Positions 20,637-62,004 of a DNA stretch of 64,000 bases are shown here, piece after piece (positions within the stretch are counted from its first letter, which is position 1; each line of letters begins with the position of its first letter). Made by a program: the position numbers and the translations under genes. This stretch comes from a virus, in IMG/VR virus record IMGVR_UViG_3300017758_000003, positions 1 to 64,000 of that record. The stretch is one strand, 5' to 3'. The notes beneath the pieces were generated by a model. It was not told the DNA's origin, ran no database searches, and saw nothing but the letters and a program-made list of their open reading frames with translations.

Positions 20637-21767
20637 ATGAAGAAAATTAAACTAACAGAATCACAATATAATAAACTTATGTTGAATGAAGGTTCATACG
20701 ATCAGATCGTAGGACTTATGGGTTCTAAACTTAAATCAGGTGCAAAAACTTTAAGTAGTACCGACCTATCAAGTATTGCTGATAGTATATATGATGCAAT
20801 CAAAGGTGTGGGTACTGATGAAGACGCAATTAAAGCGGGGTTTTCAAAATGTGTCAACCTACATGATGTACAAGCATTAGCAAGAACTTTTCAAAAAAAT
20901 ACAGGAGAATCAATAGTCAGTTGGTTAGATGGTGACATTGATAGTGAAAATGATTGGAACGTTTATGTCTTAAGACCTATTAGAAACGCATACAACACGT
21001 CCAAACAACAAGGACACTTTGAAGCGGTGAAGGTAAGTAAGGTTGAAGAATCAATCATTGCAAAATTTCCTTGTCTAAAAGATACACCTGGTTATAAATT
21101 TTATAAGGAAGATGCTGGTAGAGGTATTCTTTACTTTACTGCAGATGGTGGAAACTATTATGGTATTAAACCTGATGGAACATTATACCTGTATAGTAGA
21201 GACGAAAACAAGTATGTTGCCTTCCCTGAAAAAACTAAATGTGTCGGTGCACAATATACCTCAATAGATGAATTAAACTTACATAATATTGCAGAGTACG
21301 GAGATACTCATGAATATGGTAGTGAAATCGAAGAAGCGGGACTTAACTTAAACCCAGGTGGTGTTACACCTGAGAAGAAGGAAGATCCTGTTAAAAAAGA
21401 TGATGAAGTTAAAAAAGATGATGAGGTTAAAACAGACGCAAGTGCTGGTCAAGAAAAACAACCTGTACAATCAACAACAAGATTAATGACAGGGACTGAT
21501 GTTTCTGAAATCCAAAAAATGTTACACGACGCAGGTCTTGGTGACGTTGTTGGGTCTATTGATGGTAAGTTAGGTAAGAATACTTTAGCAGGAATTAAAG
21601 AATTTTTGTTAGGTGCTAATAGAAAGAAGATTGAAGCAATTGCAAAACTTGAACCTAAAGGAATAGAAAAGATTAAGACTAATGTTACCTCCCCTGAATT
21701 AAGAGTGGCGGAATATGGTTCAACACTAAACGAAAGTCAGAAAAGATTTAAAAGATTAATTCGATAA
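20637..21767 (+). CDS. tagged virion cargo candidate: annexin-like and peptidoglycan-binding domains
   Basis: The protein has 376 residues. Residues 1-18 (MKKIKLTESQYNKLMLNE) are the shared tag, with L-N-E as a possible protease site. Residues about 45-120 (AIKGVGTDEDAIKAGFSKC... ) follow the annexin repeat pattern with the GxGTDE motif. Residues about 285-330 (VSEIQKMLHDAGLG... IDGKLGKNTLAGI) look like a PG_binding_1 unit. The protein ends ESQKRFKRLIR, close to the end of the next gene product. A TATTTATA-type motif lies at 20611-20620. An internal head protein is inferred. Confidence 0.6.
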   Translation: MKKIKLTESQYNKLMLNEGSYDQIVGLMGSKLKSGAKTLSSTDLSSIADSIYDAIKGVGTDEDAIKAGFSKCVNLHDVQALARTFQKNTGESIVSWLDGDIDSENDWNVYVLRPIRNAYNTSKQQGHFEAVKVSKVEESIIAKFPCLKDTPGYKFYKEDAGRGILYFTADGGNYYGIKPDGTLYLYSRDENKYVAFPEKTKCVGAQYTSIDELNLHNIAEYGDTHEYGSEIEEAGLNLNPGGVTPEKKEDPVKKDDEVKKDDEVKTDASAGQEKQPVQSTTRLMTGTDVSEIQKMLHDAGLGDVVGSIDGKLGKNTLAGIKEFLLGANRKKIEAIAKLEPKGIEKIKTNVTSPELRVAEYGSTLNESQKRFKRLIR

Positions 21768-22105
21768 TGAAAATAGTTCTTACTGAAACACAATTAAACT
21801 CTCTTGTTGAGACTGATTATGAAGCATACGTCAAAACAGTATTTAAAGACGAAGAGAAATTAAAAGACGAAGTAGATACACACATTTCAGAAGACTCTGA
21901 AAAATGTAAGTGTGAATGTAACGAGGATGGGGAAGATTGTAAGTGTCCACCTGAGTGTGAAGAATGTGACTGTAATGAAAAAGAGTTAGGAGAATGGAAT
22001 CCGAACGAATCTGTACCAACACAACCTGGTGGTTTAATGCAGGGAGCAATGTTTCCTAAATGGATACAAGAAAATAAAAACAACTTTAAAAGATTAATTA
22101 AATAA
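21767..22105 (+). CDS. tagged cysteine-cluster protein
   Basis: The protein has 112 residues. The tag MKIVLTETQLNSLVE ends in L-V-E. A block around residues 47-70 holds nine Cys among acidic residues (KCKCECNEDGEDCKCPPECE and on), as in metallothioneins and other metal-sequestering peptides. The end NKNNFKRLIK matches the end of the preceding gene product. The ATG overlaps the previous stop by one base. A metal-carrying head protein is an inference; a disulfide-rich role is the alternative. Confidence 0.6.
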   Translation: MKIVLTETQLNSLVETDYEAYVKTVFKDEEKLKDEVDTHISEDSEKCKCECNEDGEDCKCPPECEECDCNEKELGEWNPNESVPTQPGGLMQGAMFPKWIQENKNNFKRLIK

Positions 22106-22107
22106 TT

Positions 22108-22338
22108 ATGGCAGACCAAGCATCATCAAGACAAACAACTAATGATATTAGAAGTAACCTAACCTATATCAACTCACTAATAGATGCTGAAGCGGCTAAA
22201 GGTGGAGAATGTATTGTGGTATCACCACAATATATAACAGACCCAATGATTAATACACTAGTAAATGCTAAAGGTTACAATGTAACTACAAAATCAGATT
22301 CATTGGGATCCTATAAAGAATATAAAATATCGTGGTAA
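22108..22338 (+). CDS. small conserved-phage-type protein
   Basis: The protein has 76 residues: helical start (NDIRSNLTYINSLIDAEAAKGGECIVVSPQYITD) then a strand-turn-strand end GYNVTTKSDSLGSYKEYKISW. I recall this ending, x-YKISW, in small proteins of marine phages with no assigned role. It lacks the tag although it lies between tagged genes, 2 bases after one of them. Confidence 0.55.
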   Translation: MADQASSRQTTNDIRSNLTYINSLIDAEAAKGGECIVVSPQYITDPMINTLVNAKGYNVTTKSDSLGSYKEYKISW

Positions 22339-22667
22339 TGAAAAATATTAAACTAACAGAAGAACAATATAACAGACTATTTGAAAAGAAACAAATAGAA
22401 GAACAATCGTCGCAACAAGTTACATGGCCACAAATGGATGATGATGAAAAAAGGGAATACCTACAAAACTTTACATCTGATTCTGAAAAAATAGAACAAA
22501 TGTTACGTAGTCCTGAAGATCCTACGAAGGAGTTTGAAGGTATGAGTGACGATGGTAGTGTCGGTGACATTTCCGTTGAAAGATCAACACAAGAGATACT
22601 CGATGATATAGAGGGGGATGCCGATGAAATTCGACGTTCCATAGAAATTATAAAATCGAGAATGTAG
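22338..22667 (+). CDS. tagged acidic protein
   Basis: The protein has 109 residues from ATG at 22338, which shares a base with the previous stop (TAATG). The tag MKNIKLTEEQYNRLFE ends in L-F-E. The rest is acidic, Gln- and Ser-rich and predicted helical near the end (STQEILDDIEGDADEIRRSIEII). A terminator follows 11 bases after the stop. A small internal head protein is inferred. Confidence 0.6.
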   Translation: MKNIKLTEEQYNRLFEKKQIEEQSSQQVTWPQMDDDEKREYLQNFTSDSEKIEQMLRSPEDPTKEFEGMSDDGSVGDISVERSTQEILDDIEGDADEIRRSIEIIKSRM

Positions 22668-26558: not shown

Positions 26559-27449
26559 ATGGATAAAAAGACACTATTAGAAGATATTAAAAGAATACAC
26601 ACACTAACTTATGGTGGTCAGAAGACAAATATGATTGTTGAGGGGTTATTTGATAGTGATGATACGAAAGCGGACGAAGTTTCTGACGATGTTAGTGAAT
26701 TCATAGATAGTTTAAAACAGACTTCTATTAGTGGTTTATCTCAAGAGGAAAAGGGTAGTATGGAATACAAGAAAAGTGTAGAATCCATGCAAATTTCATT
26801 AGTTTTATTGGGTTATGAGTTACCTGTACACGGTATAGATGGTTTATTTGGTCCTGAAACTGCAAGTGCAGTGAAACAATTCATGAGTGATAACCAAATG
26901 GAGATTGGTAGTGAGGAAATGTTAATGGTTACTCCTGAAGTAATGAGTTTATTAACTAAAAAAGTACAAGAAAAGGGTGTTAGTAGTGAAGATCTTAAAA
27001 AACACATAAATAAACCGTTAAAACACGATGGTTCTTTAGGTGAAAAAACTGATGGTATAACAATTGCCACTTATTTAATGAAGAAAAACTATTCCAAAGC
27101 ACAATCGGCAGGAATTGCAGGTAATTTGTATGTGGAGTCGGGTTATAGGACTGGTGTTATAGGCGATAATGGTACTTCCTATGGGTTAGCACAATGGCAC
27201 AAGACAAGATGGGAACGTTTGAATAAGTTCTGTGAATCTGAAGGATTAGATCCATCAGAAGCAGAAGCCCAACTAATATATTTAGATTGGGAACTACGTA
27301 CACGTGAGAAAAGGGCATATAAAGAGTTAATGAAAACCGATACACCCTATGATTCAGCATATGCGTTTGCAAAGTACTTCGAAAGACCACGCAAAATAAA
27401 CCCCAAAAGAATGTCTAAGGCTGAGGAGATATATAAACGTTTAGGATAG
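26559..27449 (+). CDS. tail-lysozyme-type protein with peptidoglycan-binding domain
   Basis: The protein has 296 residues. Residues about 74-111 (SMQISLVLLGYELPVHGIDG... FGPETASAVKQF) are a PG_binding_1 unit. Residues about 165-260 (YSKAQSAGIAGNLYVESGY with Glu193, then DNGTSYGLAQWHKTRWERL) match phage tail lysozyme (Phage_lysozyme2 type), which cuts the sugar backbone during infection. The N-terminus MDKKTLLEDIKRI has L-L-E, but does not clearly match the tag. It is followed directly by a tagged gene. Confidence 0.75.
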   Translation: MDKKTLLEDIKRIHTLTYGGQKTNMIVEGLFDSDDTKADEVSDDVSEFIDSLKQTSISGLSQEEKGSMEYKKSVESMQISLVLLGYELPVHGIDGLFGPETASAVKQFMSDNQMEIGSEEMLMVTPEVMSLLTKKVQEKGVSSEDLKKHINKPLKHDGSLGEKTDGITIATYLMKKNYSKAQSAGIAGNLYVESGYRTGVIGDNGTSYGLAQWHKTRWERLNKFCESEGLDPSEAEAQLIYLDWELRTREKRAYKELMKTDTPYDSAYAFAKYFERPRKINPKRMSKAEEIYKRLG

Positions 27450-27450
27450 T

Positions 27451-27666
27451 ATGAAAGTATCAATAACCGAAAGTCAACTTAAATTAATAGTAGAGGACAG
27501 TAAAAAGTCCAAAAAAGACAAAAAAACACCCAAAAAAGACCAAAACAAGGGTGATTTTGACCGTTTGGCCTATTATTTAGAGTATTATAGTAATCTCACA
27601 CCATCAGGATTTGATATCTGTAAAAAAGGTGATGATATCATCATTTCCATCCCTGAACGTAACTAA
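27451..27666 (+). CDS. tagged lysine-rich protein
   Basis: The protein has 71 residues. The tag MKVSITESQLKLIVE ends in I-V-E. A Lys-rich block follows (SKKSKKDKKTPKKDQNK), as in DNA-associated internal head proteins, then a small alpha/beta piece (DICKKGDDIIISIPERN). It starts one base after the lysozyme stop, so the two are co-expressed. Confidence 0.6.
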   Translation: MKVSITESQLKLIVEDSKKSKKDKKTPKKDQNKGDFDRLAYYLEYYSNLTPSGFDICKKGDDIIISIPERN

Positions 27667-28694: not shown

Positions 28695-29621
28695 ATGAGG
28701 AACCTAACAATACTATTATTCGTAATTACCATAACAAGTTGTTCACCCCTACAATTTAAATATTCAACTCTAAATCACGCAGGTCAGATTGATGGAATTT
28801 ATAATAATAAGACGGTAAAAATAGACACCATTGAAAATGAGTTTCAGTTAGCGAGAAAATTTAGAACCGACGATAGATTCAGATGGGATTTTGCCCAATA
28901 TGCGATGAGACAAGATATGAGATGGAGTTATGATTTCTATTGGAATAATAGAATGTATAGACGTGGAGTTGGTTCTCCATTCAATTTCTACTGGAACTCT
29001 CAACAATATTGGTGGAGTTGGGCTAGTAATTCCCCTTTCAATATGGGATTCAATCAATGGGACCCATTTGGATTTAACAACTATGGTTGGGGTAGTACAT
29101 ACTATGGATATAACTATGGTTGGAATTTATACAATAACTATGGTTGGGGTTTTAATAATTGGGGATCGAGAGATACATGGAATACATACGCTTGGAATAA
29201 TAGAGACGATTTAAGGGACGTTGTAAGAGTAAGAGGTAGAAGAGGGTCAAATAGTGTTGTTAACACAAATAATGATGTCTCAAATACTCCTAACAAAAGA
29301 ATTGTGATTAATAATGAAGATGGTATTGTTATAAGAAATAATAACGGAGAAATCATAAGAATTAATAATGGGAGGAACAATAATAATATTAGAGTTTACA
29401 ACAACCCAAATAGGGTACCCAATAATCTGAGACCTAACAATAACAATAGAGTTATTAATAACAATAATGTTAGGGGTTCGTGGAGACCAAACAACAATAA
29501 TAACAACGTCAACTCAAGAAGTTCTTCATCACCGAGATCTTATGTTCCACCACCAAATGGAGGAAACACAAGTGGTGGAAAAGTGATAAGTAGAGGTTCA
29601 AGAGGAAATAACAAACAATAA
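28695..29621 (+). CDS. Asn-rich lipoprotein
   Basis: The protein has 308 residues from ATG at 28695; an in-frame TTG at 28680 lies in the promoter motif. ILLFVITITSC is a lipoprotein signal with the modified Cys about residue 16. The mature part is rich in aromatic residues and Gly early (FNNYGWGSTYYGYNYGWNLY) and in Asn and Arg later (runs of NNN and RPNNNN). This repetitive composition suggests a flexible surface protein. It overlaps the next tagged gene by one base. Confidence 0.55.
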   Translation: MRNLTILLFVITITSCSPLQFKYSTLNHAGQIDGIYNNKTVKIDTIENEFQLARKFRTDDRFRWDFAQYAMRQDMRWSYDFYWNNRMYRRGVGSPFNFYWNSQQYWWSWASNSPFNMGFNQWDPFGFNNYGWGSTYYGYNYGWNLYNNYGWGFNNWGSRDTWNTYAWNNRDDLRDVVRVRGRRGSNSVVNTNNDVSNTPNKRIVINNEDGIVIRNNNGEIIRINNGRNNNNIRVYNNPNRVPNNLRPNNNNRVINNNNVRGSWRPNNNNNNVNSRSSSSPRSYVPPPNGGNTSGGKVISRGSRGNNKQ

Positions 29622-29890
29622 TGAAAAAAGTAATCATTACAGAAACACAAGTAAAAAAACTAATTGATAATGTCGTTGAAGATTTAGATTATCACAGGGT
29701 TGATGATGCGTCTCCTGAAAAAGACAAATACGTCATGTCTCAAGAAAATGAAGAGGATGAAGTAGGTGAGGGGAGAAGGTCTCTTTCAAGAACAAGAAAG
29801 AAAAGATTATTCTCCAAGGCGGAAGTAATGGCAAACCCCGCAAGATTTAAACACCACGATAGAAAATTAAAAGGGGTAAAACTTAAATAG
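29621..29890 (+). CDS. tagged basic protein
   Basis: The protein has 89 residues. The tag MKKVIITETQVKKLIDNVVE matches the shared pattern with V-V-E in place of L-x-E. The second half is basic (RRSLSRTRKKRLFSKAEVM... KLKGVKLK) and could bind DNA or RNA. It overlaps the Asn-rich gene stop by one base. Confidence 0.6.
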   Translation: MKKVIITETQVKKLIDNVVEDLDYHRVDDASPEKDKYVMSQENEEDEVGEGRRSLSRTRKKRLFSKAEVMANPARFKHHDRKLKGVKLK

Positions 29891-30374
29891 AATAAGTAAT
29901 AACATTGATTGACGAAGCAACAATATTTCCGTCAGAATCATTCTCTAATTCAATTTCAATATTTTCATCAATACCAATAATACCTCTTGGTTCTTGTTGA
30001 TCAATATCCGCAGAATCCCAATCAATTTTTACTTTGATTGTTGCATCCGTTGGATCTTCTGAACCTTCAGGATAATATTGAATATACAAATCTAATTCTT
30101 CAGGACCTTGAACGTCATATACTGAAATTGTTTTGATTCCCCAACTACGGTGTTCTGATTCGATCAGGTAGTTTACGGTGAACTCTAAATTTTCAATATC
30201 TTCTATCTCTTGACCTTTGAATGTTAAACTCGAACTATAGTTAAAATCAAGTTCACATTTCATTTCATATCTGTTATCACCCATACCTTCATTTAGTTCA
30301 TTCGTTTCACCCTCAGATGAAACATATTCGTTTATTTTATTCATTTGTTCAGTAGTCAAAACAATTTTTTTCAT
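29883..30374 (-). CDS. tagged beta-rich protein
   Basis: The protein has 163 residues from ATG at 30374; upstream in-frame codons lie in leader sequence. The tag MKKIVLTTEQMNKINE ends in I-N-E. The body alternates beta-strands with acidic turns (YEMKCELDFNYSSSLTFKG, ATIKVKIDWDSADID), suggesting a small beta-sandwich. Its stop overlaps the end of the plus-strand tagged gene. No family is recognised. Confidence 0.6.
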   Translation of the reverse strand: MKKIVLTTEQMNKINEYVSSEGETNELNEGMGDNRYEMKCELDFNYSSSLTFKGQEIEDIENLEFTVNYLIESEHRSWGIKTISVYDVQGPEELDLYIQYYPEGSEDPTDATIKVKIDWDSADIDQQEPRGIIGIDENIEIELENDSDGNIVASSINVITYSI

Positions 30375-33730: not shown

Positions 33731-34297
33731 ATGGAAAAATTTTTATTCAAGAAAGGTTACTACAGTATCTATGAAATCAAAACCAAAGGTAAGGTAAAGT
33801 ATATGGTTGATAACGGTAAAACCTTGTTTGTTGCGAGGTTCAATAAATGGATAACAAACCCATACAGAGACAAAAAAACATTCACAACTTTAAAGAAAGC
33901 TCAAGAATATGTTTCTAAAAAACTTATGATATCAAAACAAAAAAAGAAAAAGAAACTTGATAAATTACCTAAATCACTTTATTTGGTACTTCTCAAAGAA
34001 GAGAAATCAGGTAATCTTTTTGTTAAGGTTGGTATAACATCCAAAAAATATATAATGAGAAGATTTTCTAAAAAGTATGGGTACGAGGGGTATACACTTG
34101 AAAAGATACTTCGTAGGATTAATACTCCACGTGCGGAGAGATTAGAAGAGAGTATAAAACTTACATTAAAAAAGAAAAGGTCCGTAAAAAGTTACAGACC
34201 CTTGTTGGAAAACTTCGGTGGTTATACCGAATGTTATAATATTGATTCTCTTGATTCTATAGTTCAGGTATTTGACTCTGCAACGAAGAATGATTAA
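33731..34297 (+). CDS. GIY-YIG/T5orf172-like nuclease-domain protein
   Basis: The protein has 188 residues. Residues about 83-171 read as a GIY-YIG-like domain (LYLVLLKEEKSGNLFVKVGITSKKY... IMRRF) with a helix bearing Glu (TPRAERLEESIKL). The N-terminal 75 residues are basic with a Lys-rich linker (SKQKKKKKLDKLPK), which would suit DNA binding, perhaps as in phage endonucleases with AP2-like modules. It is a second GIY-YIG type besides the one at 223. A homing nuclease is one possibility. Confidence 0.5.
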   Translation: MEKFLFKKGYYSIYEIKTKGKVKYMVDNGKTLFVARFNKWITNPYRDKKTFTTLKKAQEYVSKKLMISKQKKKKKLDKLPKSLYLVLLKEEKSGNLFVKVGITSKKYIMRRFSKKYGYEGYTLEKILRRINTPRAERLEESIKLTLKKKRSVKSYRPLLENFGGYTECYNIDSLDSIVQVFDSATKND

Positions 34298-34644
34298 CCG
34301 ATCCCAATAAAAGATAAAAACTTATCTATAAGGTCACCGTGTTTACTTTTACAATCTCTCATAATATCTTTCTCTTTTTCAGTAAGAGAAGAACCTGTGG
34401 AGTAACCCCAAACACCGTCCATATCTAAACCTCTTTTAGTTCTTTGGAACTTTGCGATTGCTGATGAAGTTCCATCACCATGTAATCCATCAATTTCTAA
34501 TTTAGATCCGACTACTTTATTCAAAAAACATTGAATTGCTTTCTTCGCATTTAATTCTGCGGTCTGTTCGGTCAATACTTGTTCCTCGACAACATTGTCC
34601 AATATACTCTTGATTTGAGATTCAGTAAAAATGTATTTCTTCAT
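34294..34644 (-). CDS. tagged peptidoglycan-binding protein
   Basis: The protein has 116 residues. The tag is MKKYIFTESQIKSILDNVVE. Residues about 35-80 (KKAIQCFLNKVVGSKLEIDGLHGDGTSSAIAKFQ) look like a PG_binding_1 domain. There is no catalytic part. TATAAATAT lies just upstream (34650-34658). Its presence as tagged cargo suggests it travels in the virion and binds the cell wall. Confidence 0.65.
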   Translation of the reverse strand: MKKYIFTESQIKSILDNVVEEQVLTEQTAELNAKKAIQCFLNKVVGSKLEIDGLHGDGTSSAIAKFQRTKRGLDMDGVWGYSTGSSLTEKEKDIMRDCKSKHGDLIDKFLSFIGIG

Positions 34645-43362: not shown

Positions 43363-43365
43363 AAT

Positions 43366-46383: not shown

Positions 46384-46393
46384 AACATAGAAA

Positions 46394-47851
46394 ATGAATA
46401 TAAAATTAATAACAGTAACGTGGTCACATGAAAATACATATGACATAGAAAATACCACATTATATAAATCTTTTAAACGATATAATCCTCATAAAGAAAT
46501 TGTACACCATCATTTTAACAGAGGTCACTTCCATAAAGAAGAAAATGAATTTAGAAATAGGTTTGGTAACGAGAGTGAATACCTTCTTTATAAAATACAT
46601 TTATGGAGAGACATAGTCAGAAATATTGAGTGTGATTACATAGTATTTTGTGATGCAAACGATGTTGTATGTTTAGGTAATGTGGGTGACTTAATAGGTC
46701 AGTTTGATTTGGAGAATAATATCATATGTGGACACGAAAAAAATCAGTGGCCAACACCTGAAGCAAAACAATCTTGGCCAGAGTACAAAGATTATAATCA
46801 ATACGACACAAGTGAGCGTAAGTACTTAAACTCAGGAATGATTTTATCAAAAAAAGATAAGTATGTTGAAATGTTAGATGTTATGGTTGAAAAATTAATG
46901 TTTGGAAAAGACATTAAAACTTTCAATAATGACCAAGGTGTTTTTACGTATTATTATAATACGGGGGTTGAACCGAGAATTAAATTAGATTACTCCAATG
47001 TCTTCACAGTAAACACATTCTCAAGATCACACGACGAATATGAGATGGTGGGTCACAGAATACAATCTAAAAAAAATGAGACTCAACCTTTATTTGTACA
47101 CGATAATGGTTGGAATCACGGAAGTCCAAGATTTTTAAATCATTTTGAGTTAAAAAGACATTTTATTAACTCATATCCGAGACTTAAAGACATATCTAGA
47201 GAAAGACCGATTAATGCGACTCATCAAGAGTACTTAATCAGAATGAGAGATGAGTTTGGTTTTAATCCAAATATTATATATGATGTTGGTGCTTGTGTAA
47301 ATCATTGGAATACAATTGCGAAAGAGGTTTGGCCAAATGCTAAGTATTATTTATTCGAAGCGATGGAAGAATCAGAAGATTTATTTTTAGAGGGAAATGA
47401 CCCATATGAAATTGGTGTATTTAGTGATGTCGATGATAAAGAGGTTACATTTTATAAAAATGTTACATTCCCTGGTGGTAATTCCTATTACATGGAAAAC
47501 CCACAACATAGTAGTATGGCATCCGCTTTATTTGAGAATCCATCCAACCAATTTGCGAGAAAAACAAAGACTTTAGATACGGTTATGAAGAGAAGAGGAT
47601 TTCCACTACCACAACTTTTGAAAATAGACGTACAAGGTTGTGAAATTGACATCCTAAAAGGTTGTCCTGAAATACTTAATAATGTAGAACATCTGATTGT
47701 TGAGTTACAACATGTTGAATATAACATTGGAGCTCAATTACAAGACGAATCAATACCAATTATAGAGTCGTTAGGTTTTGAATTAATAACACCTTCCTTC
47801 TCACTGTCAAGTCACGCAGATAGTGACTATCATTTTAAAAAAATAAAATAA
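46394..47851 (+). CDS. PLOD-like glycosyltransferase fused to FkbM methyltransferase
   Basis: The protein has 485 residues. The first half (DYIVFCDANDVVCLGNVGDL with DAND, then KYLNSGMILSKKDKYVEML and NNDQGVFTYYYN) matches PLOD-like GT-A enzymes. The second half (IIYDVGACVNHWN, LKIDVQGCEIDILKGCPEIL) is FkbM-like, with the DVQG-x-E motif. It lies 10 bases after the preceding fusion but is not a close copy of it. Two such fusions in tandem suggest alternating methylated sugars on one glycan. Confidence 0.65.
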   Translation: MNIKLITVTWSHENTYDIENTTLYKSFKRYNPHKEIVHHHFNRGHFHKEENEFRNRFGNESEYLLYKIHLWRDIVRNIECDYIVFCDANDVVCLGNVGDLIGQFDLENNIICGHEKNQWPTPEAKQSWPEYKDYNQYDTSERKYLNSGMILSKKDKYVEMLDVMVEKLMFGKDIKTFNNDQGVFTYYYNTGVEPRIKLDYSNVFTVNTFSRSHDEYEMVGHRIQSKKNETQPLFVHDNGWNHGSPRFLNHFELKRHFINSYPRLKDISRERPINATHQEYLIRMRDEFGFNPNIIYDVGACVNHWNTIAKEVWPNAKYYLFEAMEESEDLFLEGNDPYEIGVFSDVDDKEVTFYKNVTFPGGNSYYMENPQHSSMASALFENPSNQFARKTKTLDTVMKRRGFPLPQLLKIDVQGCEIDILKGCPEILNNVEHLIVELQHVEYNIGAQLQDESIPIIESLGFELITPSFSLSSHADSDYHFKKIK

Positions 47852-47861
47852 ATTAATAACT

Positions 47862-48074
47862 ATGAAACAACATGTATATAACTTTTTAAAGTCTCAAGCC
47901 GAGGCAGATAAAAACAAGGCACTTGCAAGTATTGAACTACTAACTAATAATCCTGCAGGTATTGGGGATCACTCAACAAAGGATTATTGGGACAATTGTA
48001 CTGAAACACTTAAATTACTTTCATCTGCTGATGAGAGATTAGAAATATTAGAGAAATACTTCAAACAGTCATAG
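47862..48074 (+). CDS. small helical conserved-phage-type protein
   Basis: The protein has 70 residues, all helical, with the central TNNPAGIGDHSTKDYWDNCTETLKLL. I recall this NPAGIGDHST segment in small T4-like phage proteins. It sits inside the glycan operon, with ATG of the carbamoyltransferase directly after its stop. It may have been carried along rather than belong to the pathway. Confidence 0.55.
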   Translation: MKQHVYNFLKSQAEADKNKALASIELLTNNPAGIGDHSTKDYWDNCTETLKLLSSADERLEILEKYFKQS

Positions 48075-49634
48075 ATGGGTTTACCAAACATTGCATTACA
48101 CAGTCATCATAATGCTGCATTTGCCGTTGAATTAGACGGTGATATTGTGACGGTCATTGAGTTAGAAAGATTTGTAAATCAGAAAAACGCAAGTCATTGT
48201 TTTTTTCAACCAATCCATGTTCATGAACCTATCATAGGTGAAGTATATCAGTATTTGAAACTGAACTATGGTTTTACAAAATACGAAAACTTTATTATGG
48301 GTCATGGTCATCAAGAATTTCCTGAATCATGGAAAAAAATGATCCCCGCAAATAATTACATAAAAAATGAAGATCACCATATTTCACATGCATCTTCAAG
48401 TTTTTATCAGTCACCACATGATGAAGCAGTTATCATTTCTTTTGATGGTGGTGCAAATGATGGTTTCTTTAGAATCCTACACGGAATAAAAGGACAGGAC
48501 CTAAAAGATATAAAACACTACTCGATTGATTTAGGTAGTCATTACCACCTTATAGGTTTGTTTTGTGAAGATATAAAACATTATAACCAACTAACTGCCG
48601 CAGGTAAGGTCTTAGGTTTACAATCATACGGTAAAATTAGAGACGAATGGGTACAACCATTGAAAGATTTCTTTAATTCAAGGATACCCTATTTCGTGGA
48701 TTTAGAACAAAAGAAGAAAACACTATCAGACAGAATCGGTATACCATTTTCTGAAGAAAATAAATTAAAGGGACAAGATCAATACGACTTTGCCCGTACT
48801 GCACAACATGCATTTGAATTAATATTTTTCGAGTTGGTAGATGAGAGTATCAAACAGTACCAACTACCTATAATACTTACAGGTGGTTGTGCATTGAATA
48901 TAACTCTTAACAGTAGAGTTAAAGACACTTACCCTCATTTAGATGTGTTTATTGCACCTAATTCGAGTGATTGTGGTATTCCCGTAGGTTTACTTTGTAC
49001 ACTCGTTAAACCAAAGAAAATTATAGACGTAACGTATAAAGGTGTTGCTGCGTTAGACCGAACTTTACTTATGGAGTATGTCAATACACATAACGCTAAA
49101 AAGGTTAATGTAGATGCAATCGTTGAGGATCTGAGTATTCAAAGGATATTAGGGTTAGTACAAGGTAATTCCGAACATGGTCCAAGGGCATTAGGTAACA
49201 GAAGTATTATATGTTCCCCAATTCCATTAGATATGAAAGACACTTTAAACCACAAAGTAAAACACAGAGAATGGTTTAGACCATTTGCACCAATAGTTCG
49301 TTTAGAAGATGTTTCTGAATATTTTGAATGGGAAGGTGAAAGTAGATGGATGAACTTCTGTCCAATGGTAAAAGAAGAGTGGAGGGATAGATTACCCGCA
49401 ATAACCCACATTGATGGTACTGCGAGAGTACAAACAGTAACTAAAGAACAAAATCCTTTAGTTTATGAAATACTAACTAAATTTAAAGAGAAAACAGGTG
49501 TGGGGGTTTTGGTAAATACATCTTTTAACGTAGATAGGAAACCAATATTATCATCATATAAAGATGCATTTAAAGTATTCAACGAAACTGAATTAGATAG
49601 ATTATACTTAGACGGATATTACTTTACTAAATAA
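48075..49634 (+). CDS. NodU/CmcH-type carbamoyltransferase
   Basis: The protein has 519 residues. The N-terminal Kae1-like half has EDHHISHASSSFYQSPHDEAVIISFDGGAND (metal-binding His and phosphate loop). The C-terminal half has SEHGPRALGNRSI and VNTSFNVDRKPI, the carbamoyl-transfer motifs. It would move a carbamoyl group from carbamoyl phosphate to a sugar hydroxyl. It is the last gene of the operon, with a terminator after it. A decorated glycan or a hypermodified base are both possible acceptors. Confidence 0.75.
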   Translation: MGLPNIALHSHHNAAFAVELDGDIVTVIELERFVNQKNASHCFFQPIHVHEPIIGEVYQYLKLNYGFTKYENFIMGHGHQEFPESWKKMIPANNYIKNEDHHISHASSSFYQSPHDEAVIISFDGGANDGFFRILHGIKGQDLKDIKHYSIDLGSHYHLIGLFCEDIKHYNQLTAAGKVLGLQSYGKIRDEWVQPLKDFFNSRIPYFVDLEQKKKTLSDRIGIPFSEENKLKGQDQYDFARTAQHAFELIFFELVDESIKQYQLPIILTGGCALNITLNSRVKDTYPHLDVFIAPNSSDCGIPVGLLCTLVKPKKIIDVTYKGVAALDRTLLMEYVNTHNAKKVNVDAIVEDLSIQRILGLVQGNSEHGPRALGNRSIICSPIPLDMKDTLNHKVKHREWFRPFAPIVRLEDVSEYFEWEGESRWMNFCPMVKEEWRDRLPAITHIDGTARVQTVTKEQNPLVYEILTKFKEKTGVGVLVNTSFNVDRKPILSSYKDAFKVFNETELDRLYLDGYYFTK

Positions 49635-50463: not shown

Positions 50464-51060
50464 ATGAATATTAAACTGACAGAGTCTCAACTTATAAATA
50501 TCATCGAAAATGTGGATAAACTGACAGGTGCAGAGAAATTCGCAGATACCGTTGATAAATTAGCCAGTTTATATAAAGATGAATTACCTGATAGTGTCAT
50601 TAATAAAATGATTGATGACGTTGATGGTGCTCACTTCACTGAGGAGGAATTTCAAGTACCACTCAAACAATATAAATTAACAAGTCCCTATGGTCCGAGA
50701 AATATTGGCGGTAATGCAAGTAGAAATCATAAGGGGGTTGATTTGGGAGTACCTTCGGGAACTCCAATTTATTGTCCTGCCGATGGTAAGGTTATAAGAT
50801 CTAAAAATGCTGGTGGTAAATGTGGTGGTTTTTTAAAAATTAAACACACCAACGGTTTTGAAACAAAATATTGTCATTTGACTAATTTTAATATAGTCAA
50901 AAAAGGTCAACAGGTGATAAAGGGACAACTTGTAGGTAAAACAGGTGGTGGACCAAATGACCCGTACAGAGGTAACTCAATGGGACCACACTTACATTAT
51001 GAGGTTTTAAAGGGTGGCACACATGTTGACCCACAAACCATTCACACTACACTTTCTTAA
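50464..51060 (+). CDS. tagged M23 peptidoglycan endopeptidase
   Basis: The protein has 198 residues. The tag MNIKLTESQLINIIE ends in I-I-E. The M23 domain (about residues 66-196) has the zinc ligands H89-x3-D93 and H176-x-H178 (HLHYE), plus the GKTGGGPND loop. It cleaves peptide cross-links in peptidoglycan. Unlike host M23 enzymes it has no signal peptide. The tag suggests it is packaged in the head, perhaps to open the wall from inside or at entry. ATATTTATT lies 2-3 bases before the ATG. Confidence 0.75.
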   Translation: MNIKLTESQLINIIENVDKLTGAEKFADTVDKLASLYKDELPDSVINKMIDDVDGAHFTEEEFQVPLKQYKLTSPYGPRNIGGNASRNHKGVDLGVPSGTPIYCPADGKVIRSKNAGGKCGGFLKIKHTNGFETKYCHLTNFNIVKKGQQVIKGQLVGKTGGGPNDPYRGNSMGPHLHYEVLKGGTHVDPQTIHTTLS

Positions 51061-51708: not shown

Positions 51709-52080
51709 ATGAGTTTCTTAGAACAAAGGGATAAAGACAGAATTGTTGCATTTATAAGATTCGTTAAAGACGAGTTAGGCATTAAAACCATGCCCTCAAT
51801 CAAACTATTGAATGGTAGAGGAGTCTTGAAGACAACGGCACATTACAATTATTCTCAACCCACGAAAGTTATTAAAGTAAATTCAAAAAATAGACATATT
51901 GTTGATATTATGAGGAGTTGTGCACATGAATTAGTTCATCACTCACAATACGAACAAGGTCTTTTAGACGGTCCCAAACCACCCGACATTGGTGGAAATA
52001 TAGAAGATGAAGCAAACTCAAGGGCGGGACAGTTTATCAAGTTGTACTCGAAGATGGATAGTACAATTTATGATGAATAA
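51709..52080 (+). CDS. small zincin metallopeptidase-like protein
   Basis: The protein has 123 residues. SCAHELVHHSQYEQG has the HExxH-type motif (H-E-L-V-H-H) and GGNIEDEANSRAG downstream could give the third ligand (Glu). The fold is gluzincin-like, close to WLM/SprT-type mini-proteases. Its substrate is unknown. ATATTTATT lies 3-4 bases before the ATG. Confidence 0.6.
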   Translation: MSFLEQRDKDRIVAFIRFVKDELGIKTMPSIKLLNGRGVLKTTAHYNYSQPTKVIKVNSKNRHIVDIMRSCAHELVHHSQYEQGLLDGPKPPDIGGNIEDEANSRAGQFIKLYSKMDSTIYDE

Positions 52081-53372: not shown

Positions 53373-53600
53373 ATGAGAATAGTAGTAAGTGAAAAACAGT
53401 TAGGTATGCTAGCGTCATACCAGTCTGATCTTGACGAACAAGAATCAGGTGATACAGGTGGTTCAGGAACTACGGCAGGATCTAAAGGACAGTGGGAAAC
53501 AGGGGTATCAAGAGGTCCTGATAACCAAATTGGTCTTACTAAATGGTCTGACATAGTTGGATCTAAAATAAGTAGAGGTAAAGCAAACCCACTATATTAA
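53373..53600 (+). CDS. protein with a divergent tag
   Basis: The protein has 75 residues. MRIVVSEKQLGML is a weaker match to the tag (SE-x-Q in place of TE-x-Q), and no clear L-x-E follows (the next acidic residue is D). The rest is Gly, Ser and Thr rich (ESGDTGGSGTTAGSKGQW). It starts a four-gene operon of large candidate virion proteins. Confidence 0.5.
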   Translation: MRIVVSEKQLGMLASYQSDLDEQESGDTGGSGTTAGSKGQWETGVSRGPDNQIGLTKWSDIVGSKISRGKANPLY

Positions 53601-53601
53601 G

Positions 53602-54855
53602 ATGGTAGTACAAAGAGACGGTTTAATATTAGAAAGACATAATAGTATGATTAACTATAATGGTCATTCTTCAATTACCAAAGAAAAAAGAAATTATGTA
53701 TTTGAAGCACATCTAACGGTAGACGAGAGATATTTCGTTTTACATGATGAAGTGTTCGATATTCAAGAACAGACGAAATTGGGTAACTTATGGGAGTCTG
53801 TAGATATATTTAAAACGATATTTTCAAATGTACAGGTGGATAACCCCGAATATAAAGAAATTCAAGAAGGATGGGCAAACTTACCTGTATTAGAAAATAG
53901 TGATAATTTATATAAATTAAGAGACTTCCTATTAGAATGGGACTTTTTTGATGATACATGGGTTGGTAGAAAAGTATCTGACGCAGGTACCGCAATAAAA
54001 GACACCGCAAGTGCTGCATGGGATAAAGTTAAGGAAATGGGTGTCGCCATAAGTAAGGGAGATTGGACAGAAATATTAAGTTTATTAGGAAAGGGTGTTT
54101 TATTTATATTAAGAAAATTAAAAGATGCCGCTTATAGTACTATAGGTATTATTGTGGATGCGATACTAGTAGCTACAGGTATTGGTAAAACAGCACAGGT
54201 TGTTGTTTGGGGATTAATCACGGCATTGGATGTATACCAAATTGCAAATAACGATTGGCCCGACGGTGATGATCGTGAACCACTATGGAAATACTTGGAC
54301 TTAGGTTTTGATATTTTAGGATTAACACTCGCAGGGGTTGCCGCTAAAGGTGCACGTGCAGTCTTTAAACCATTATCAGGATTAAGTTCAAAACAAATGG
54401 CGGTAAAGGTTGCAAAGAGTCCAAGAATGAAAAGTTTTATTCAAAAGATGTATAATGGTAGTAAGAAAACTGCAAGTAAATTAAAAAGTATACAATCGAG
54501 AATTGCGAAGAAGTGGCCATCAGGTGCTAAGTTCATCGGTAAGATAATTGGGGGGTTAGCATCAATAGTAAAAAAATTACAATCTTATTTAGGTAGGATA
54601 CTAAGTAAATCTAACTTAAAAGGAGTACAAAAGGGTGTAAAACCAGGAAAAGGTTTCGTACCTACAGTAAAAACAGGTAAAGAGTTTGCCAAGAGGGCGG
54701 CTGTTGCTGGTGGTGTCGCAGGAGGAATCTCCTACGGTGCAGAAAAAATAATCGGGGCTAAGGGTAATCAAGAAGACCCACTTGACTATATTAATAATAC
54801 AGGTAGGGGTCCTGCCTTTGGTGTGGAACTCGATCAGGACGCAATCGATTTATAA
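53602..54855 (+). CDS. large candidate virion protein with hydrophobic segments
   Basis: The protein has 417 residues. Two or three hydrophobic stretches lie about residues 185-255 (STIGIIVDAILVATGIG, VVVWGLITALDVYQ, LGFDILGLTLAGVAAKG), then a long basic part rich in Lys and Gly, ending GVELDQDAIDL. An internal ejection protein that reaches the membrane is a good guess from this architecture, but no family match is known to me. Confidence 0.5.
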   Translation: MVVQRDGLILERHNSMINYNGHSSITKEKRNYVFEAHLTVDERYFVLHDEVFDIQEQTKLGNLWESVDIFKTIFSNVQVDNPEYKEIQEGWANLPVLENSDNLYKLRDFLLEWDFFDDTWVGRKVSDAGTAIKDTASAAWDKVKEMGVAISKGDWTEILSLLGKGVLFILRKLKDAAYSTIGIIVDAILVATGIGKTAQVVVWGLITALDVYQIANNDWPDGDDREPLWKYLDLGFDILGLTLAGVAAKGARAVFKPLSGLSSKQMAVKVAKSPRMKSFIQKMYNGSKKTASKLKSIQSRIAKKWPSGAKFIGKIIGGLASIVKKLQSYLGRILSKSNLKGVQKGVKPGKGFVPTVKTGKEFAKRAAVAGGVAGGISYGAEKIIGAKGNQEDPLDYINNTGRGPAFGVELDQDAIDL

Positions 54856-54878: not shown

Positions 54879-57086
54879 ATGAAATTATTAGACGTATTAA
54901 CCGAAAGTAATAAAGAAGTTGAAGAACAACTACAAGGTATTCTTAGAGGTGCCGCGAAAAACATATCTAAAGTAAAGGGAGCTATAGATGATGTTGTAAA
55001 ATTTGCACTTAATTCAGGTCAAGTTATTAAAAATGTAGATGGTGTTGCATTAGCAACATCTGATGACATTATAAAAGCGATGAAAGCGGGAACTTTAGGT
55101 TCTACGGGAGCATCTCAATTAGCATCTGGATTACTCAAATCAAACAGGTTACCTAAAGACATACAAAGAACATTAGTTAATGAAATTGCTGCGGGGTCTA
55201 AATTTCAGAAAGTCGTTGGTAGTGTTAAATCTGAGAAAGCATTAAAAACAAGACTCAGTAAAAAAGGTTATACTGCAGAGACTATCGAACTTATGATTGG
55301 TAGGGCTAAAGACCAAAAGATTGGTCCTTTTGCAGTAGTAAGTAAGGTTAAACCTAAAGTAAAGACAACCACAACAAAGAAAGCCACAACGACTACCAAA
55401 GCAACCACTACCAAGGCAGCAACAACAGGTACGAGTACAGTAAGTAAAAAATTAGATGATATTCTTGCCGCCCTAACGGGTACCGCTAAGAAGTCGGGTC
55501 AGGGTCAAAGAATATTAAAGTCTGCAAATAGATGGAAAAATTCTAAACTTGGAAAAGGTTTAGTTGGTGTTGTTACGAGAGTTGGATCTTTTGCACTCAT
55601 CAAGAATTTACTATGGTTATTACTAATTGCGGGTGTTGGAGGATACATTATTTCAAAAATGTGGAAAAACTTTTGGTCTGAGGGAGATCCAATCCCATCT
55701 GATGACGATTTGATACCAGTAAACGATTGGCTTGAATGTATTGTAACACCTTTAGGTGATGACGCAAATGCAGAGATCATCGAACAAAATGGTGTAGCAG
55801 TAAAATATAAAATTGATAAGTTTGGTGGTAAAGAAACAGGTGGTCATGTAATTTTCACACCTGACTATAGAGTGAAGGCGGCGAACGGTATTGAAGGTAC
55901 TTGGTCTTGTAACCAAACAGGTTTAGAGGAATCAATCAATGAACAAGGATTAAGTGGAATTGGTGATTCAAACTCATCTAATTCAAACTCATCTAATTCA
56001 GATTCATCTAAAATTGAGATATCAGCGAAAGATATGAGTAGAGCCATAGACAGTATTGAAGACAACTTAAGTGGTGATTATTTAGAATCAGATTCTACAG
56101 ACCTTAAAGACGCTTATAATATCGTAAAAGGTTTACAAAACAGATCATATAAAGGTAGAGATGCCATACGTGTACTTATTAAGAATTACCCAAAAATTAA
56201 GGGTAAAGAATTAGGTACTCACATATTAGAACTTGAAAACTTAGATTTTGAAGCAACTGAAATAAGAGACGAACTTTTAAGTTTACTTGGATATTCAGTA
56301 GAAAAAAGTGGTGGTAACGATGATTCATCTAATAAGAAAGGTGATTCTGATGGTGGTGATGGAAACCCTAAAACAGGTTTATCACATATTACAGTTGTAT
56401 GGGATGGTAAAGATGGTGGAGGAAAAGGAAAAGGTATTAAGTATGTACCATGTGATAGTTTCCCATTCAAGATCGGATGTATCAGTGATAAAATTAAAGA
56501 CGTTCAAAAATGTGCTGGTGATTTAAAGGTGGATGGTTATTATGGACCAAAGACTGATGCAAGACTTGCCAAAGTTATAATTGGTTATTCTAAAACAATT
56601 ACAAAAAAGAGTTATGATAAAATAACAAAAGAATGTAAAGGTAAAAAGTCTGACGGTGTTACTAAATTGAAGGCAGTTGATCCTGTAAAAAAGAGAGAGA
56701 AACTTACTAAGATCACACCATTAGAAATACAACCTATTGTATTACCAAAATTAGACATAGAAAAAATGATCAAGGTTCATGGACCTGAGAAGTTAGAGAA
56801 TTACATTCAAAAAACTATTGACGGTAAACGAATAAAAGATATCATTGATAATGAGGTAAAATTCAGAGGTGGAAGGTTCATATTGAAATTGAAAGAAGAA
56901 CTTACTGAGAAACAGTTAAAGGCAATAAATTACTATTTTGCATCAAAAGGTTTCAGTTTAGATAAAAAGAAAGAAACCCTTAAACAAGGAAAGTATGTTT
57001 GGAAGGCGGAGACATCAACCGCAAGAAGAATTGCAAGAAAGGAATTATCAATTGAGAAACTAAAAGACAAGCAAAATGAAAATTAA
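54879..57086 (+). CDS. largest candidate virion protein with peptidoglycan-binding unit
   Basis: The protein has 735 residues. MKLLDVLTESNKE resembles the start of the 2474 gene, with L-T-E as a possible cut site. A Thr-rich linker (KTTTTKKATTTTKATTTK) precedes a transmembrane-like segment (ALIKNLLWLLLIAGVGGYII, about residues 238-258). A Ser/Asn linker (NSNSSNSNSSNSD) follows, then a PG_binding-like unit (ISDKIKDVQKCAGDLKVDGYYGPKTDARLAKV) in the second half. The design suits a virion protein passing the envelope. Confidence 0.5.
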   Translation: MKLLDVLTESNKEVEEQLQGILRGAAKNISKVKGAIDDVVKFALNSGQVIKNVDGVALATSDDIIKAMKAGTLGSTGASQLASGLLKSNRLPKDIQRTLVNEIAAGSKFQKVVGSVKSEKALKTRLSKKGYTAETIELMIGRAKDQKIGPFAVVSKVKPKVKTTTTKKATTTTKATTTKAATTGTSTVSKKLDDILAALTGTAKKSGQGQRILKSANRWKNSKLGKGLVGVVTRVGSFALIKNLLWLLLIAGVGGYIISKMWKNFWSEGDPIPSDDDLIPVNDWLECIVTPLGDDANAEIIEQNGVAVKYKIDKFGGKETGGHVIFTPDYRVKAANGIEGTWSCNQTGLEESINEQGLSGIGDSNSSNSNSSNSDSSKIEISAKDMSRAIDSIEDNLSGDYLESDSTDLKDAYNIVKGLQNRSYKGRDAIRVLIKNYPKIKGKELGTHILELENLDFEATEIRDELLSLLGYSVEKSGGNDDSSNKKGDSDGGDGNPKTGLSHITVVWDGKDGGGKGKGIKYVPCDSFPFKIGCISDKIKDVQKCAGDLKVDGYYGPKTDARLAKVIIGYSKTITKKSYDKITKECKGKKSDGVTKLKAVDPVKKREKLTKITPLEIQPIVLPKLDIEKMIKVHGPEKLENYIQKTIDGKRIKDIIDNEVKFRGGRFILKLKEELTEKQLKAINYYFASKGFSLDKKKETLKQGKYVWKAETSTARRIARKELSIEKLKDKQNEN

Positions 57087-57726
57087 TATAGATAACTTAG
57101 TTAAACAGACCTTAAATGAGAGGTACGAATTAAATAATAAATTCAAACTCATTTTAGAGAATGAAGAAACTAACGACGATGGTAAGTTTGATGATGTTGT
57201 GGATGCACTTGCCGATTTAGAAGGAATGGGTAAGAGTGATGATGAAATCGAAGGTTCTTTAGATGAAGGTATTACTGATTTCTTATCTCAGTATATTTCA
57301 CCAGGTGGTGACAACGCATCTGATTCCGAAGGTAATTCTTTATCAAAGGGGGATCTGAAAAATAAAGTTAGTAGTGGTTTAATGTCACAAATACGTGAGT
57401 ATATTATTAGAAAACTATTAGGTATGGTTGGATTCACTGGTGATTTACGTGATGCTGTAGCAGCTGCACTTGCAGATTTAAATTTGGGTGATGTATTAAT
57501 TGTGTTCAAAGGACAAGAAAGTTGTAAAAAACATGGAGATAAATTAGCCGATGCATTTATGGAAGGATTATTTGTATATGTTTCGGGTGGTGCAGAAAAA
57601 AATTCAGCAGCAGCCAACTTCCTAAGACAGGTTGGTGGTGAGTATTTGAAAGGTACTAACTTTGGGGAGATGTTGGCAGATTCTATCTGTGGTATGAACC
57701 TTAGAAGTAAGTTGAAAGTTAATTAA
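57076..57726 (+). CDS. candidate virion protein with tag-like start
   Basis: The protein has 216 residues. The start MKINIDNLVKQTLNERYELNNKFKLILEN has L-N-E (residues 13-15) and L-E, so processing is possible though the LTE-x-Q core is absent. The rest is acidic then helical with small residues (LRDAVAAALADLNLGDVLIVFKG). It overlaps the 54879 gene by 11 bases. No function is recognised. Confidence 0.5.
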   Translation: MKINIDNLVKQTLNERYELNNKFKLILENEETNDDGKFDDVVDALADLEGMGKSDDEIEGSLDEGITDFLSQYISPGGDNASDSEGNSLSKGDLKNKVSSGLMSQIREYIIRKLLGMVGFTGDLRDAVAAALADLNLGDVLIVFKGQESCKKHGDKLADAFMEGLFVYVSGGAEKNSAAANFLRQVGGEYLKGTNFGEMLADSICGMNLRSKLKVN

Positions 57727-60869: not shown

Positions 60870-61112
60870 ATGGCATTTAAAGACTTATTTAAAGACGAAA
60901 ACGACATTAATGAAAAATCTGTCGTTGGATTTGCATCATTTGCAATTATGACTTTGTTCGCACTTGCAGATTTACTTACAGGGTATTTTGGTACAGACCT
61001 TGTAATCAATGAGTTTATCTATAACTCATTCGTAGTTATTACATTAGGTTCTTTTGGTATTGCTGAAGTTGGTAAAATCTTTGGTAAAAAAGGACAAGAA
61101 GGACAAGAATAA
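60870..61112 (+). CDS. candidate holin
   Basis: The protein has 80 residues with a charged N-terminal helix (MAFKDLFKDENDINEKS) and two predicted membrane segments (GFASFAIMTLFALADLLTGYF, then NSFVVITLGSFGIAEVGKI). A short charged tail follows. The design and the immediately downstream endolysin fit a class II holin, which permeabilises the inner membrane to release the enzyme. CTATTTATATA lies about 40 bases upstream. Confidence 0.65.
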   Translation: MAFKDLFKDENDINEKSVVGFASFAIMTLFALADLLTGYFGTDLVINEFIYNSFVVITLGSFGIAEVGKIFGKKGQEGQE

Positions 61113-61122
61113 AAAACAAAGA

Positions 61123-62004
61123 ATGATTTTAAAAATTGGATCAAGAGGAAAAGAAGTCAAAGAACTTCAAGAATTTCTTGAAATCGGAGCGGATGGTGTC
61201 TTCGGTTCAGGAACTGAATCTGCAGTTAAGAAATGGCAGTCCGAAAATGGTTTGGGGAGTGACGGTATTGTCGGTCCTGCCACTTGGGATGCTATGGGTA
61301 TTGCTACTACTGATAATTCAGAAAAAATATATGAAACGGAAAATGGATTGATTGTTAATAGACATCTTTTACCTGTGGGGGAATATAAACAAGGTCCCAC
61401 AAATAAAGAATATGTTTTCATACACCACACAGCGGGGTGGCATAATCCATATAATTGTATTGACCAATGGGCCAGAGATACTAGAGGTGCGGTAGCCACT
61501 GAATTTGTATTAGGTGGTCCGTCCGTAAAAGGTAACGACACTAAATATGATGGAGAAATGGTACAATGTATACCCGAGGGTGGATACGGTTGGCATTTAG
61601 GAAAAAATGGTTCACGACACATGCACACACACTCAGTTGGTATCGAGGTTTGTAACTTCGGTTGGGTTAAGAATGGTAAAACATACGCAGGTACAAGAGT
61701 ACACGAAAGTCAATTAGTTACACTTGACCAAGAGTTTAGAGGACACAAAACATGGCATCGTTATTCTGATACACAAATAGAATCACTAAGAAAGTGGATT
61801 TTATGGGTTGGTGAGAGAGATTCAATAGATGTTCGTAAAGGTTTACCTGAATCAATTAAAAAAATTGGTGTCTCCGCATTTGAATTTAATGAAGATGCAT
61901 ACTACGGTAGAATCAAAGGGTTATGGACCCATACTAACACTCGTAAAGATAAGGTTGACATGTTCCCACAAAAAGAGTTGGTAGACATGTTAGTTAGTTT
62001 ATAG
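61123..62004 (+). CDS. endolysin: N-acetylmuramoyl-L-alanine amidase with peptidoglycan-binding domain
   Basis: The protein has 293 residues from ATG at 61123; the longer reading overlaps the holin. Residues 3-58 (SRGKEVKELQEFLEI... DGVFGSGTESAVKKWQ) are PG_binding_1. Residues about 95-280 are Amidase_2: FIHHTAGW (His101/102), THSVGIEV, then WTHTNTRKDKVD with the distal His270 and Asp. It cleaves the bond between sugar and peptide. A terminator follows. Confidence 0.8.
   Translation: MILKIGSRGKEVKELQEFLEIGADGVFGSGTESAVKKWQSENGLGSDGIVGPATWDAMGIATTDNSEKIYETENGLIVNRHLLPVGEYKQGPTNKEYVFIHHTAGWHNPYNCIDQWARDTRGAVATEFVLGGPSVKGNDTKYDGEMVQCIPEGGYGWHLGKNGSRHMHTHSVGIEVCNFGWVKNGKTYAGTRVHESQLVTLDQEFRGHKTWHRYSDTQIESLRKWILWVGERDSIDVRKGLPESIKKIGVSAFEFNEDAYYGRIKGLWTHTNTRKDKVDMFPQKELVDMLVSL

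What the first reader, a model, noticed from the sequence alone, without database searches (positions are those of the whole stretch)
50464..51060. Peptidoglycan peptidase carries the head tag and no signal peptide
The M23 enzyme (zinc ligands present) has the tag and lacks a secretion signal. Two other tagged proteins bind or may bind peptidoglycan (20637 and 34294). If the tag means head packaging, enzymes would be delivered with the DNA or stay in the head until lysis. This differs from the usual tail-borne lysozymes, one of which lies at 26559.
Basis: partly seen in the sequence, partly recalled or inferred. Interest (0 to 1): 0.7.

Follow-up and report, generated by a model that had tools for sequence, protein, structure and literature searches.

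The report
Head-targeted cell-wall peptidase of phage
A marine T4-like phage gives a cell-wall-cutting enzyme a short, removable address label that very probably sends it into the virus head, and unrelated wall-cutting enzymes in related phages carry the same kind of label, which suggests that such phages pack wall enzymes together with their DNA.

Summary
ORF 50464-51060 is an intact M23 endopeptidase (all zinc and catalytic residues present) with no signal peptide. It starts with MNIKLTESQLINIIE, a tag shared by nine ORFs of this 78-kb T4-like record.

The tag looks like a T4-type capsid-targeting propeptide. It is followed by the gp21 site [I/L]-x-E in 87 of 102 non-redundant tagged proteins (39.5 +/- 4.6 by shuffling). 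The record encodes a gp21-type prohead protease, and the major capsid protein has the same site (LINE|AA). In five M23 relatives the tag is kept and the linker diverges. The site moves along the chain but survives in every one.

A tag DNA pattern hits 74 viral stretches, 69 at ORF starts; its reversed control hits none. Tagged proteins elsewhere include a T4-type lysozyme with LysM and a SleB-type hydrolase.

Best reading: the M23 enzyme enters the prohead, is trimmed by the protease and leaves with the DNA to open peptidoglycan at entry, as T7 gp16 does. Packaging is well supported by sequence; action at entry is inference. New variant of a known kind.

The parts
50464..51060 (+). M23 zinc endopeptidase with an N-terminal head tag
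50464..50508 (+). Tag and putative propeptide MNIKLTESQLINIIE; predicted gp21-type cut after E15 (IIE|N)
   Evidence: site statistics; six-sequence M23 alignment
50725..51033 (+). M23 catalytic domain (H89, D93, H138, H176, H178)
20637..21767 (+). Tagged protein MKKIKLTESQYNKLMLNE|G, weak PG_binding_1; ends ...TLNE|SQKRFKRLIR
21767..22105 (+). Tagged protein MKIVLTETQLNSLVE|T; ends ...WIQE|NKNNFKRLIK
22338..22667 (+). Tagged protein MKNIKLTEEQYNRLFE|K
26559..27449 (+). Phage_lysozyme2 + PG_binding_1 protein with a second-class propeptide-like N-terminus ending MIVE|G
27451..27666 (+). Tagged protein MKVSITESQLKLIVE|D, directly after 26559
29621..29890 (+). Tagged protein MKKVIITETQVKKLIDNVVE|D
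29883..30374 (-). Tagged protein MKKIVLTTEQMNKINE|Y
34294..34644 (-). Tagged PG_binding_1 protein MKKYIFTESQIKSILDNVVEEQVLTE|Q
51709..52080 (+). Conserved neighbour of the M23 gene, untagged
53373..53600 (+). Small tagged protein MRIVVSEKQLGMLASYQSDLDE|Q, conserved near M23 in relatives
53602..54855 (+). Conserved 417-aa protein of the same module, function unknown
54879..57086 (+). 735-aa module protein with one hydrophobic segment by eye and a short N-terminus ending [IL]xE in each relative (MKLLDVLTE|S, MKLIDIIFE|S, MKLLDIILE|N)
57076..57726 (+). 216-aa module protein, N-terminus ...TLNE|RYE conserved in relatives
60870..62004 (+). Likely separate lysis cassette: small ORF holin-like by eye, then Amidase_2 + PG_binding_1 endolysin

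Best explanation
The M23 protein is head cargo of a T4-like phage. Its first 15 residues are a capsid-targeting propeptide, which takes it into the prohead core and is cut off by the gp21-type prohead protease after IIE. The mature enzyme (residues 16-198) stays with the DNA and leaves through the tail at infection. Released in the periplasm, it cuts peptidoglycan peptide cross-links at the entry site, much as the transglycosylase domain of T7 gp16 opens the wall. Shown by sequence: the intact M23 domain, the tag, the site after the tag, the protease, the same site in the major capsid protein, and conservation of this layout in relatives. Inferred: packaging, cleavage, ejection, and action at entry.
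For: Site coupled to tag: [IL]xE within 30 aa of the tag in 87 of 102 non-redundant tagged proteins, against 39.5 +/- 4.6 by shuffling, max 56 of 2000; smaller set 22/27 against 8.6, and 32% of untagged N-termini. T4 gp21 cuts after L/I-x-E, and T4 capsid-targeting sequences are N-terminal propeptides of 10-19 residues (PMC9026906). Same record: head maturation protease phrog_207 E=1.5e-44, portal, terminase; major capsid protein with LINE|AA, unchanged in the relatives listed. M23 relatives keep the tag and a site at shifting positions: IIE|N, LKE|S, IVE|S, LKE|D, IKE|E, ILE|Q. A third M23 lineage has a different propeptide-like start, MKIKLIDILLE|E. Tag pattern: 74 viral stretches, 69 at ORF starts; reversed pattern 0; 5 hits in the cellular genome collection, none opening a tagged ORF of usable length. 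phrog_207 in 15 of 23 tag-selected long records against 2 of 11 controls, Fisher p=0.03. Tagged wall proteins of other folds: lysozyme + LysM, Hydrolase_2, PG_binding_1. No signal peptide. Conserved gene neighbourhood with other propeptide-bearing proteins.
Against: No proteomics: neither packaging nor cleavage has been seen. [IL]xE is a short motif, found in about a third of untagged N-termini. 8 of 23 tag-selected records show neither phrog_207 nor the portal phrog_213, probably because they are fragments. The control set is small and mixed. T4 internal proteins are delivered to the cytoplasm (PMC9026906), where an M23 enzyme would not meet its substrate; release in the periplasm is assumed. 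The M23 gene lies about 18 kb from the terminase-portal-protease head cluster. The phage probably has a contractile tail, judged by sheath genes in relatives, with its own wall-piercing device, so a second enzyme may be auxiliary.
Confidence: 0.6

Rival explanations
1. The tag is a head-targeting propeptide and M23 is packaged, but the enzyme is not used at entry: it rides along, trims the prohead interior, or is released only when progeny lyse the cell.
For: Same packaging evidence. Nothing in the sequence shows where the enzyme acts.
Against: The M23 active site is conserved in relatives. Tagged wall enzymes of several unrelated folds recur, which points to selection for the wall-cutting activity in the particle. 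A separate lysis amidase exists.
Confidence: 0.2
2. M23 is a late endolysin or auxiliary lysin, released through the holin like other signal-less endolysins; the tag is unrelated to the head.
For: Best PHROG matches include endolysins; signal-less endolysins are normal.
Against: The tag is shared with many non-lysins and coupled to prohead protease sites. An amidase endolysin with a holin-like neighbour lies at 60870-62004. M23 lies in a different, conserved module.
Confidence: 0.1
3. M23 is a tail or baseplate component; the tag is a docking peptide for the tail.
For: Many phage M23 domains sit in tape measure proteins.
Against: Here M23 is a stand-alone 198-aa protein; the tag sits on dozens of unrelated proteins and is followed by the prohead protease site, which tail proteins do not need.
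Confidence: 0.1

Closest known systems
T4 internal proteins IPI/IPII/IPIII and Alt with capsid-targeting sequences
   Same: Short N-terminal propeptide, cut by a gp21-type protease after L/I-x-E, on unrelated cargo, in a phage with T4-like terminase, portal, protease and major capsid protein
   Different: Other consensus (MKIxLTESQLxxLIxE); at least nine tagged proteins in this record; cargo includes wall hydrolases; packaging not yet shown
T7 gp16 and relatives (SP6 gp36, phiKMV gp36)
   Same: Peptidoglycan hydrolase proposed to travel inside the head and act at entry
   Different: Podoviruses, with no gp21-type propeptide as far as I know; gp16 is a large channel protein with a transglycosylase domain, whereas this is a small free M23 endopeptidase
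Cyanophage A4 pre-ejectosome internal protein (PDB 9k2v)
   Same: M23 domain in a head-internal protein (E=1.5e-6 by sequence; Foldseek rank 38)
   Different: M23 is one domain of a protein of about 1000 aa; its N-terminus was not examined for a tag
PhiCrAss001 capsid cargo proteins (PMC10172136)
   Same: Several virus-encoded proteins stored in the head and thought to be delivered with the DNA
   Different: No cleavage is mentioned in that paper; cargo there is polymerase-related and channel proteins

Membership tests
Peptidase family M23 | HxxxD and HxH zinc motifs plus catalytic His | tested here: met
   H89/D93, H138, H176/H178 invariant in six sequences; Pfam 94.6 bits
Peptidase family M23 | M23 (LytM-type) fold | tested here: met
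   Model of modest quality (mean pLDDT 62, domain mostly 66-87) matches M23 structures, best E=4.6e-9
T4-type capsid-targeting propeptide | Short N-terminal sequence shared by unrelated cargo | tested here: met
   A4: 78 tagged proteins, only columns T6 and E7 (nearly) invariant, 5% mean identity; varied Pfam content
T4-type capsid-targeting propeptide | Followed by prohead protease site L/I-x-E | tested here: met
   87/102 against 39.5 expected
T4-type capsid-targeting propeptide | gp21-type protease in the genome, same motif in the major capsid protein | tested here: met
   phrog_207 E=1.5e-44; LINE|AA
T4-type capsid-targeting propeptide | Needed for packaging; cut in the mature head | not testable with these tools
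   Needs particles
T4-type capsid-targeting propeptide | Homology of the tag itself to the T4 sequence | not tested
   No alignment to T4 propeptides was made
T7 gp16-type internal wall hydrolase | Peptidoglycan hydrolase domain | tested here: met
   (different chemistry: endopeptidase)
T7 gp16-type internal wall hydrolase | Located inside the head, ejected, acts at entry | not testable with these tools
   Needs particles and infection assays
T7 gp16-type internal wall hydrolase | Large channel-forming protein with membrane segments | tested here: not met
   M23 protein is 198 aa without a hydrophobic segment in its first 45 residues; not filed as a gp16 homologue

The most novel reading that the evidence does not exclude
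A large group of marine and freshwater T4-like phages, probably of Bacteroidota, uses two or more classes of prohead-protease-removed tags to load many different proteins into the head. Wall hydrolases of several unrelated folds have been recruited to this route more than once, so that a contractile-tailed phage delivers a set of wall enzymes together with its DNA.
Probability: 0.45. Interest if true: 0.8.

Novelty: new variant of a known kind. Interest (0 to 1): 0.62.

Why it matters
If the tag is a head address, the packaged proteins of these uncultured phages can be read from sequence alone: tag plus [I/L]-x-E site predicts which proteins enter the cell with the DNA. It would also show that T4-like phages, which have a contractile tail to pierce the wall, still carry wall enzymes in the head, a strategy described so far for short-tailed phages, and would make the role of head-borne hydrolases testable.

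Tried and rejected
Close M23 relatives by single sequence in viral contigs gave only long proteins of another kind; relatives with the tag came from whole-record search and from the alignment. A tblastn search with a 23-aa composite tag found nothing, probably too short. Module proteins 53602 and 54879 have no match among isolated phages. The AlphaFold model of 54879 is poor (mean pLDDT 48) and was not used. The isolate Flavobacterium phage immuto (T4-like, with protease) has none of this tag but has short N-termini such as MKKSELVKLIKE|E; no proteomics paper on it turned up. Relative G002 (176 kb, protease 96% identical) has no tagged ORF, probably because its contig begins near the homologue of record position 64,800, so the tag region lies off its end. 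A host search with the M23 alignment in cellular genomes found nothing. A codon-position test of the tag was not informative, since the M23 relatives are too close. No paper found describes this tag.

Full report
Observation. The window is part of a 78,043-base IMG/VR record. ORF 50464-51060 encodes 198 aa with an M23 domain at residues 88-190 (E=4e-27). H89, D93, H138, H176 and H178 are invariant among six relatives; their assignment to the LytM zinc and catalytic residues is from general knowledge of the family. The N-terminus has no signal peptide: peak hydropathy 0.81, against 2.2-3.1 for eight ORFs of the same window with signal-peptide-like N-termini. The protein begins MNIKLTESQLINIIE. 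Similar N-termini occur on nine ORFs of the record; shuffled proteins give 0.6 on average, max 6 in 200.

What the tag is. The rest of the record (64001-78043, L002) holds a T4-like head cluster: terminase, portal and a head maturation protease of the gp21 family (phrog_207, E=1.5e-44), a scaffold-like acidic protein, and the start of a gp23-like major capsid protein with LINE|AA at about residue 60, unchanged in the relatives listed. T4 gp21 cuts after L/I-x-E, and T4 internal proteins are brought into the head by N-terminal propeptides of 10-19 residues that end at such a site (PMC9026906). I therefore asked whether the tag is coupled to that site. In a first set, 22 of 27 tagged proteins have [IL]xE at residues 13-38; shuffling the same residues gives 8.6 (max 19 in 2000), and 32-40% of untagged N-termini have one in similar stretches. 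In a larger set of 102 non-redundant tagged proteins, chosen by the tag and not by the site, 87 have it within 30 residues of the core, against 39.5 +/- 4.6 (max 56 in 2000). The glutamate peaks 8-9 and 13 residues after the core. Several of the exceptions have VxE or MxE.

Reach of the tag. A DNA pattern for MKIxLTE[S/T/R]Q[L/F] matched 74 stretches of viral contigs, 69 of them at ORF starts; many of these are copies of the same gene in related contigs. The reversed pattern, of the same composition, matched none. In the cellular genome collection (257 billion bases) it matched five places, none opening a tagged ORF of usable length. Of 23 long records selected by the tag pattern, or by the tagged M23 of L127, 15 have phrog_207; of 11 control records 2 do (Fisher p=0.03). 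The eight tag records without it also lack the portal family, which suggests missing head regions, though that search had no positive control. The control set is small and partly chosen by M23 similarity.

The M23 family. Tagged relatives lie in G003, G004 and G009 (50-58% identity over the full length), in L125 and in the more distant L127. In the alignment the tag and the catalytic domain are kept while the linker between them varies in length and sequence. The predicted site moves: IIE|N, LKE|S, IVE|S, LKE|D, IKE|E, ILE|Q. A third M23 lineage (G029, G033) has a different short N-terminus, MKIKLIDILLE|E.

Other wall enzymes with tags. Among 78 tagged proteins (a set that includes four M23 family members, most of them brought in by M23 searches), Pfam found M23 in 4 and PG_binding_1 in 4, and LysM, Phage_lysozyme and Hydrolase_2 in one each. 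L131 4931-5989 combines T4-type lysozyme and LysM; L169 9068-10336 has PG_binding_1; L176 2546-3385 has Hydrolase_2 just above its cut-off. In the window, 34294 has PG_binding_1 above cut-off and 20637 below. The lysozyme at 26559 starts MDKKTLLEDIKRIHTLTYGGQKTNMIVE|G. A pattern for this second class finds 10 N-termini among 4630 non-redundant ORFs, against 0.2 in shuffles; the pattern was drawn up after seeing some of them, and at least one of the ten (L129) looks unrelated.

Surroundings. In relatives the M23 gene sits with 51709, 53373 (tagged), 53602, 54879 and 57076. 54879 and 57076 keep short N-termini ending in [IL]xE. This looks like a set of head-internal proteins, which is inference. 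A likely separate lysis cassette lies at 60870-62004 (Amidase_2 + PG_binding_1; the preceding small ORF looks holin-like by eye only).

Mechanism. Most likely the M23 protein is taken into the prohead by its tag, trimmed after E15, kept with the DNA, ejected at infection and active on peptidoglycan in the periplasm. The last two steps are inferred by analogy with T7 gp16 (PMC5380687; PMC8954989) and with the M23 domain in the cyanophage A4 pre-ejectosome (PDB 9k2v). Against this, T4 internal proteins reach the cytoplasm, and sheath genes in relatives suggest a contractile tail with its own piercing device.

Verdict. The contrast with tail lysozymes and the claim of an unusual location need correction. 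I rate it a new variant of a known kind.

Noticed in passing
window 21735-21767 and 22073-22105; G016 240050-240484: Tagged proteins 20637 and 21767, and one in G016, also end in a short basic tail after an xxE site (TLNE|SQKRFKRLIR, WIQE|NKNNFKRLIK, MMNE|SVQKIKANFKRFL), perhaps a C-terminal propeptide like that of T4 Alt.
   Followed up: partly
G016 240050-250938 (L121 and neighbours): Eight or more tagged ORFs lie together in 11 kb of a 269-kb relative; one looks ParB-like and one has an HExxH motif by eye.
   Followed up: partly
window 29621-29890: Tagged 89-aa protein matches the N-terminal part of a 228-aa tagged protein of G016 (E=6e-9), so it may be a shortened copy.
   Followed up: no
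window 1381, 27774, 28680, 34676, 35368, 35946, 38607, 52710: Eight ORFs have signal-peptide-like or lipobox-like N-termini; many envelope proteins for one phage.
   Followed up: no
window 62155-63921: 588-aa ORF looks ClpB/ClpA-like by eye (GTKYRGQFEERIKAIL); an Hsp20 gene follows at record position 64356.
   Followed up: no
window 42109-49634: Run of ORFs that look like glycosyltransferases by eye, ending in a carbamoyltransferase.
   Followed up: no
L085 14991-15269, L087 14990-15268: 92-aa protein MRIIITEDQKNKIMN... scores on the tag profile but has no [IL]xE site; it looks like pterin dehydratase by eye, so tag likeness alone can mislead.
   Followed up: no
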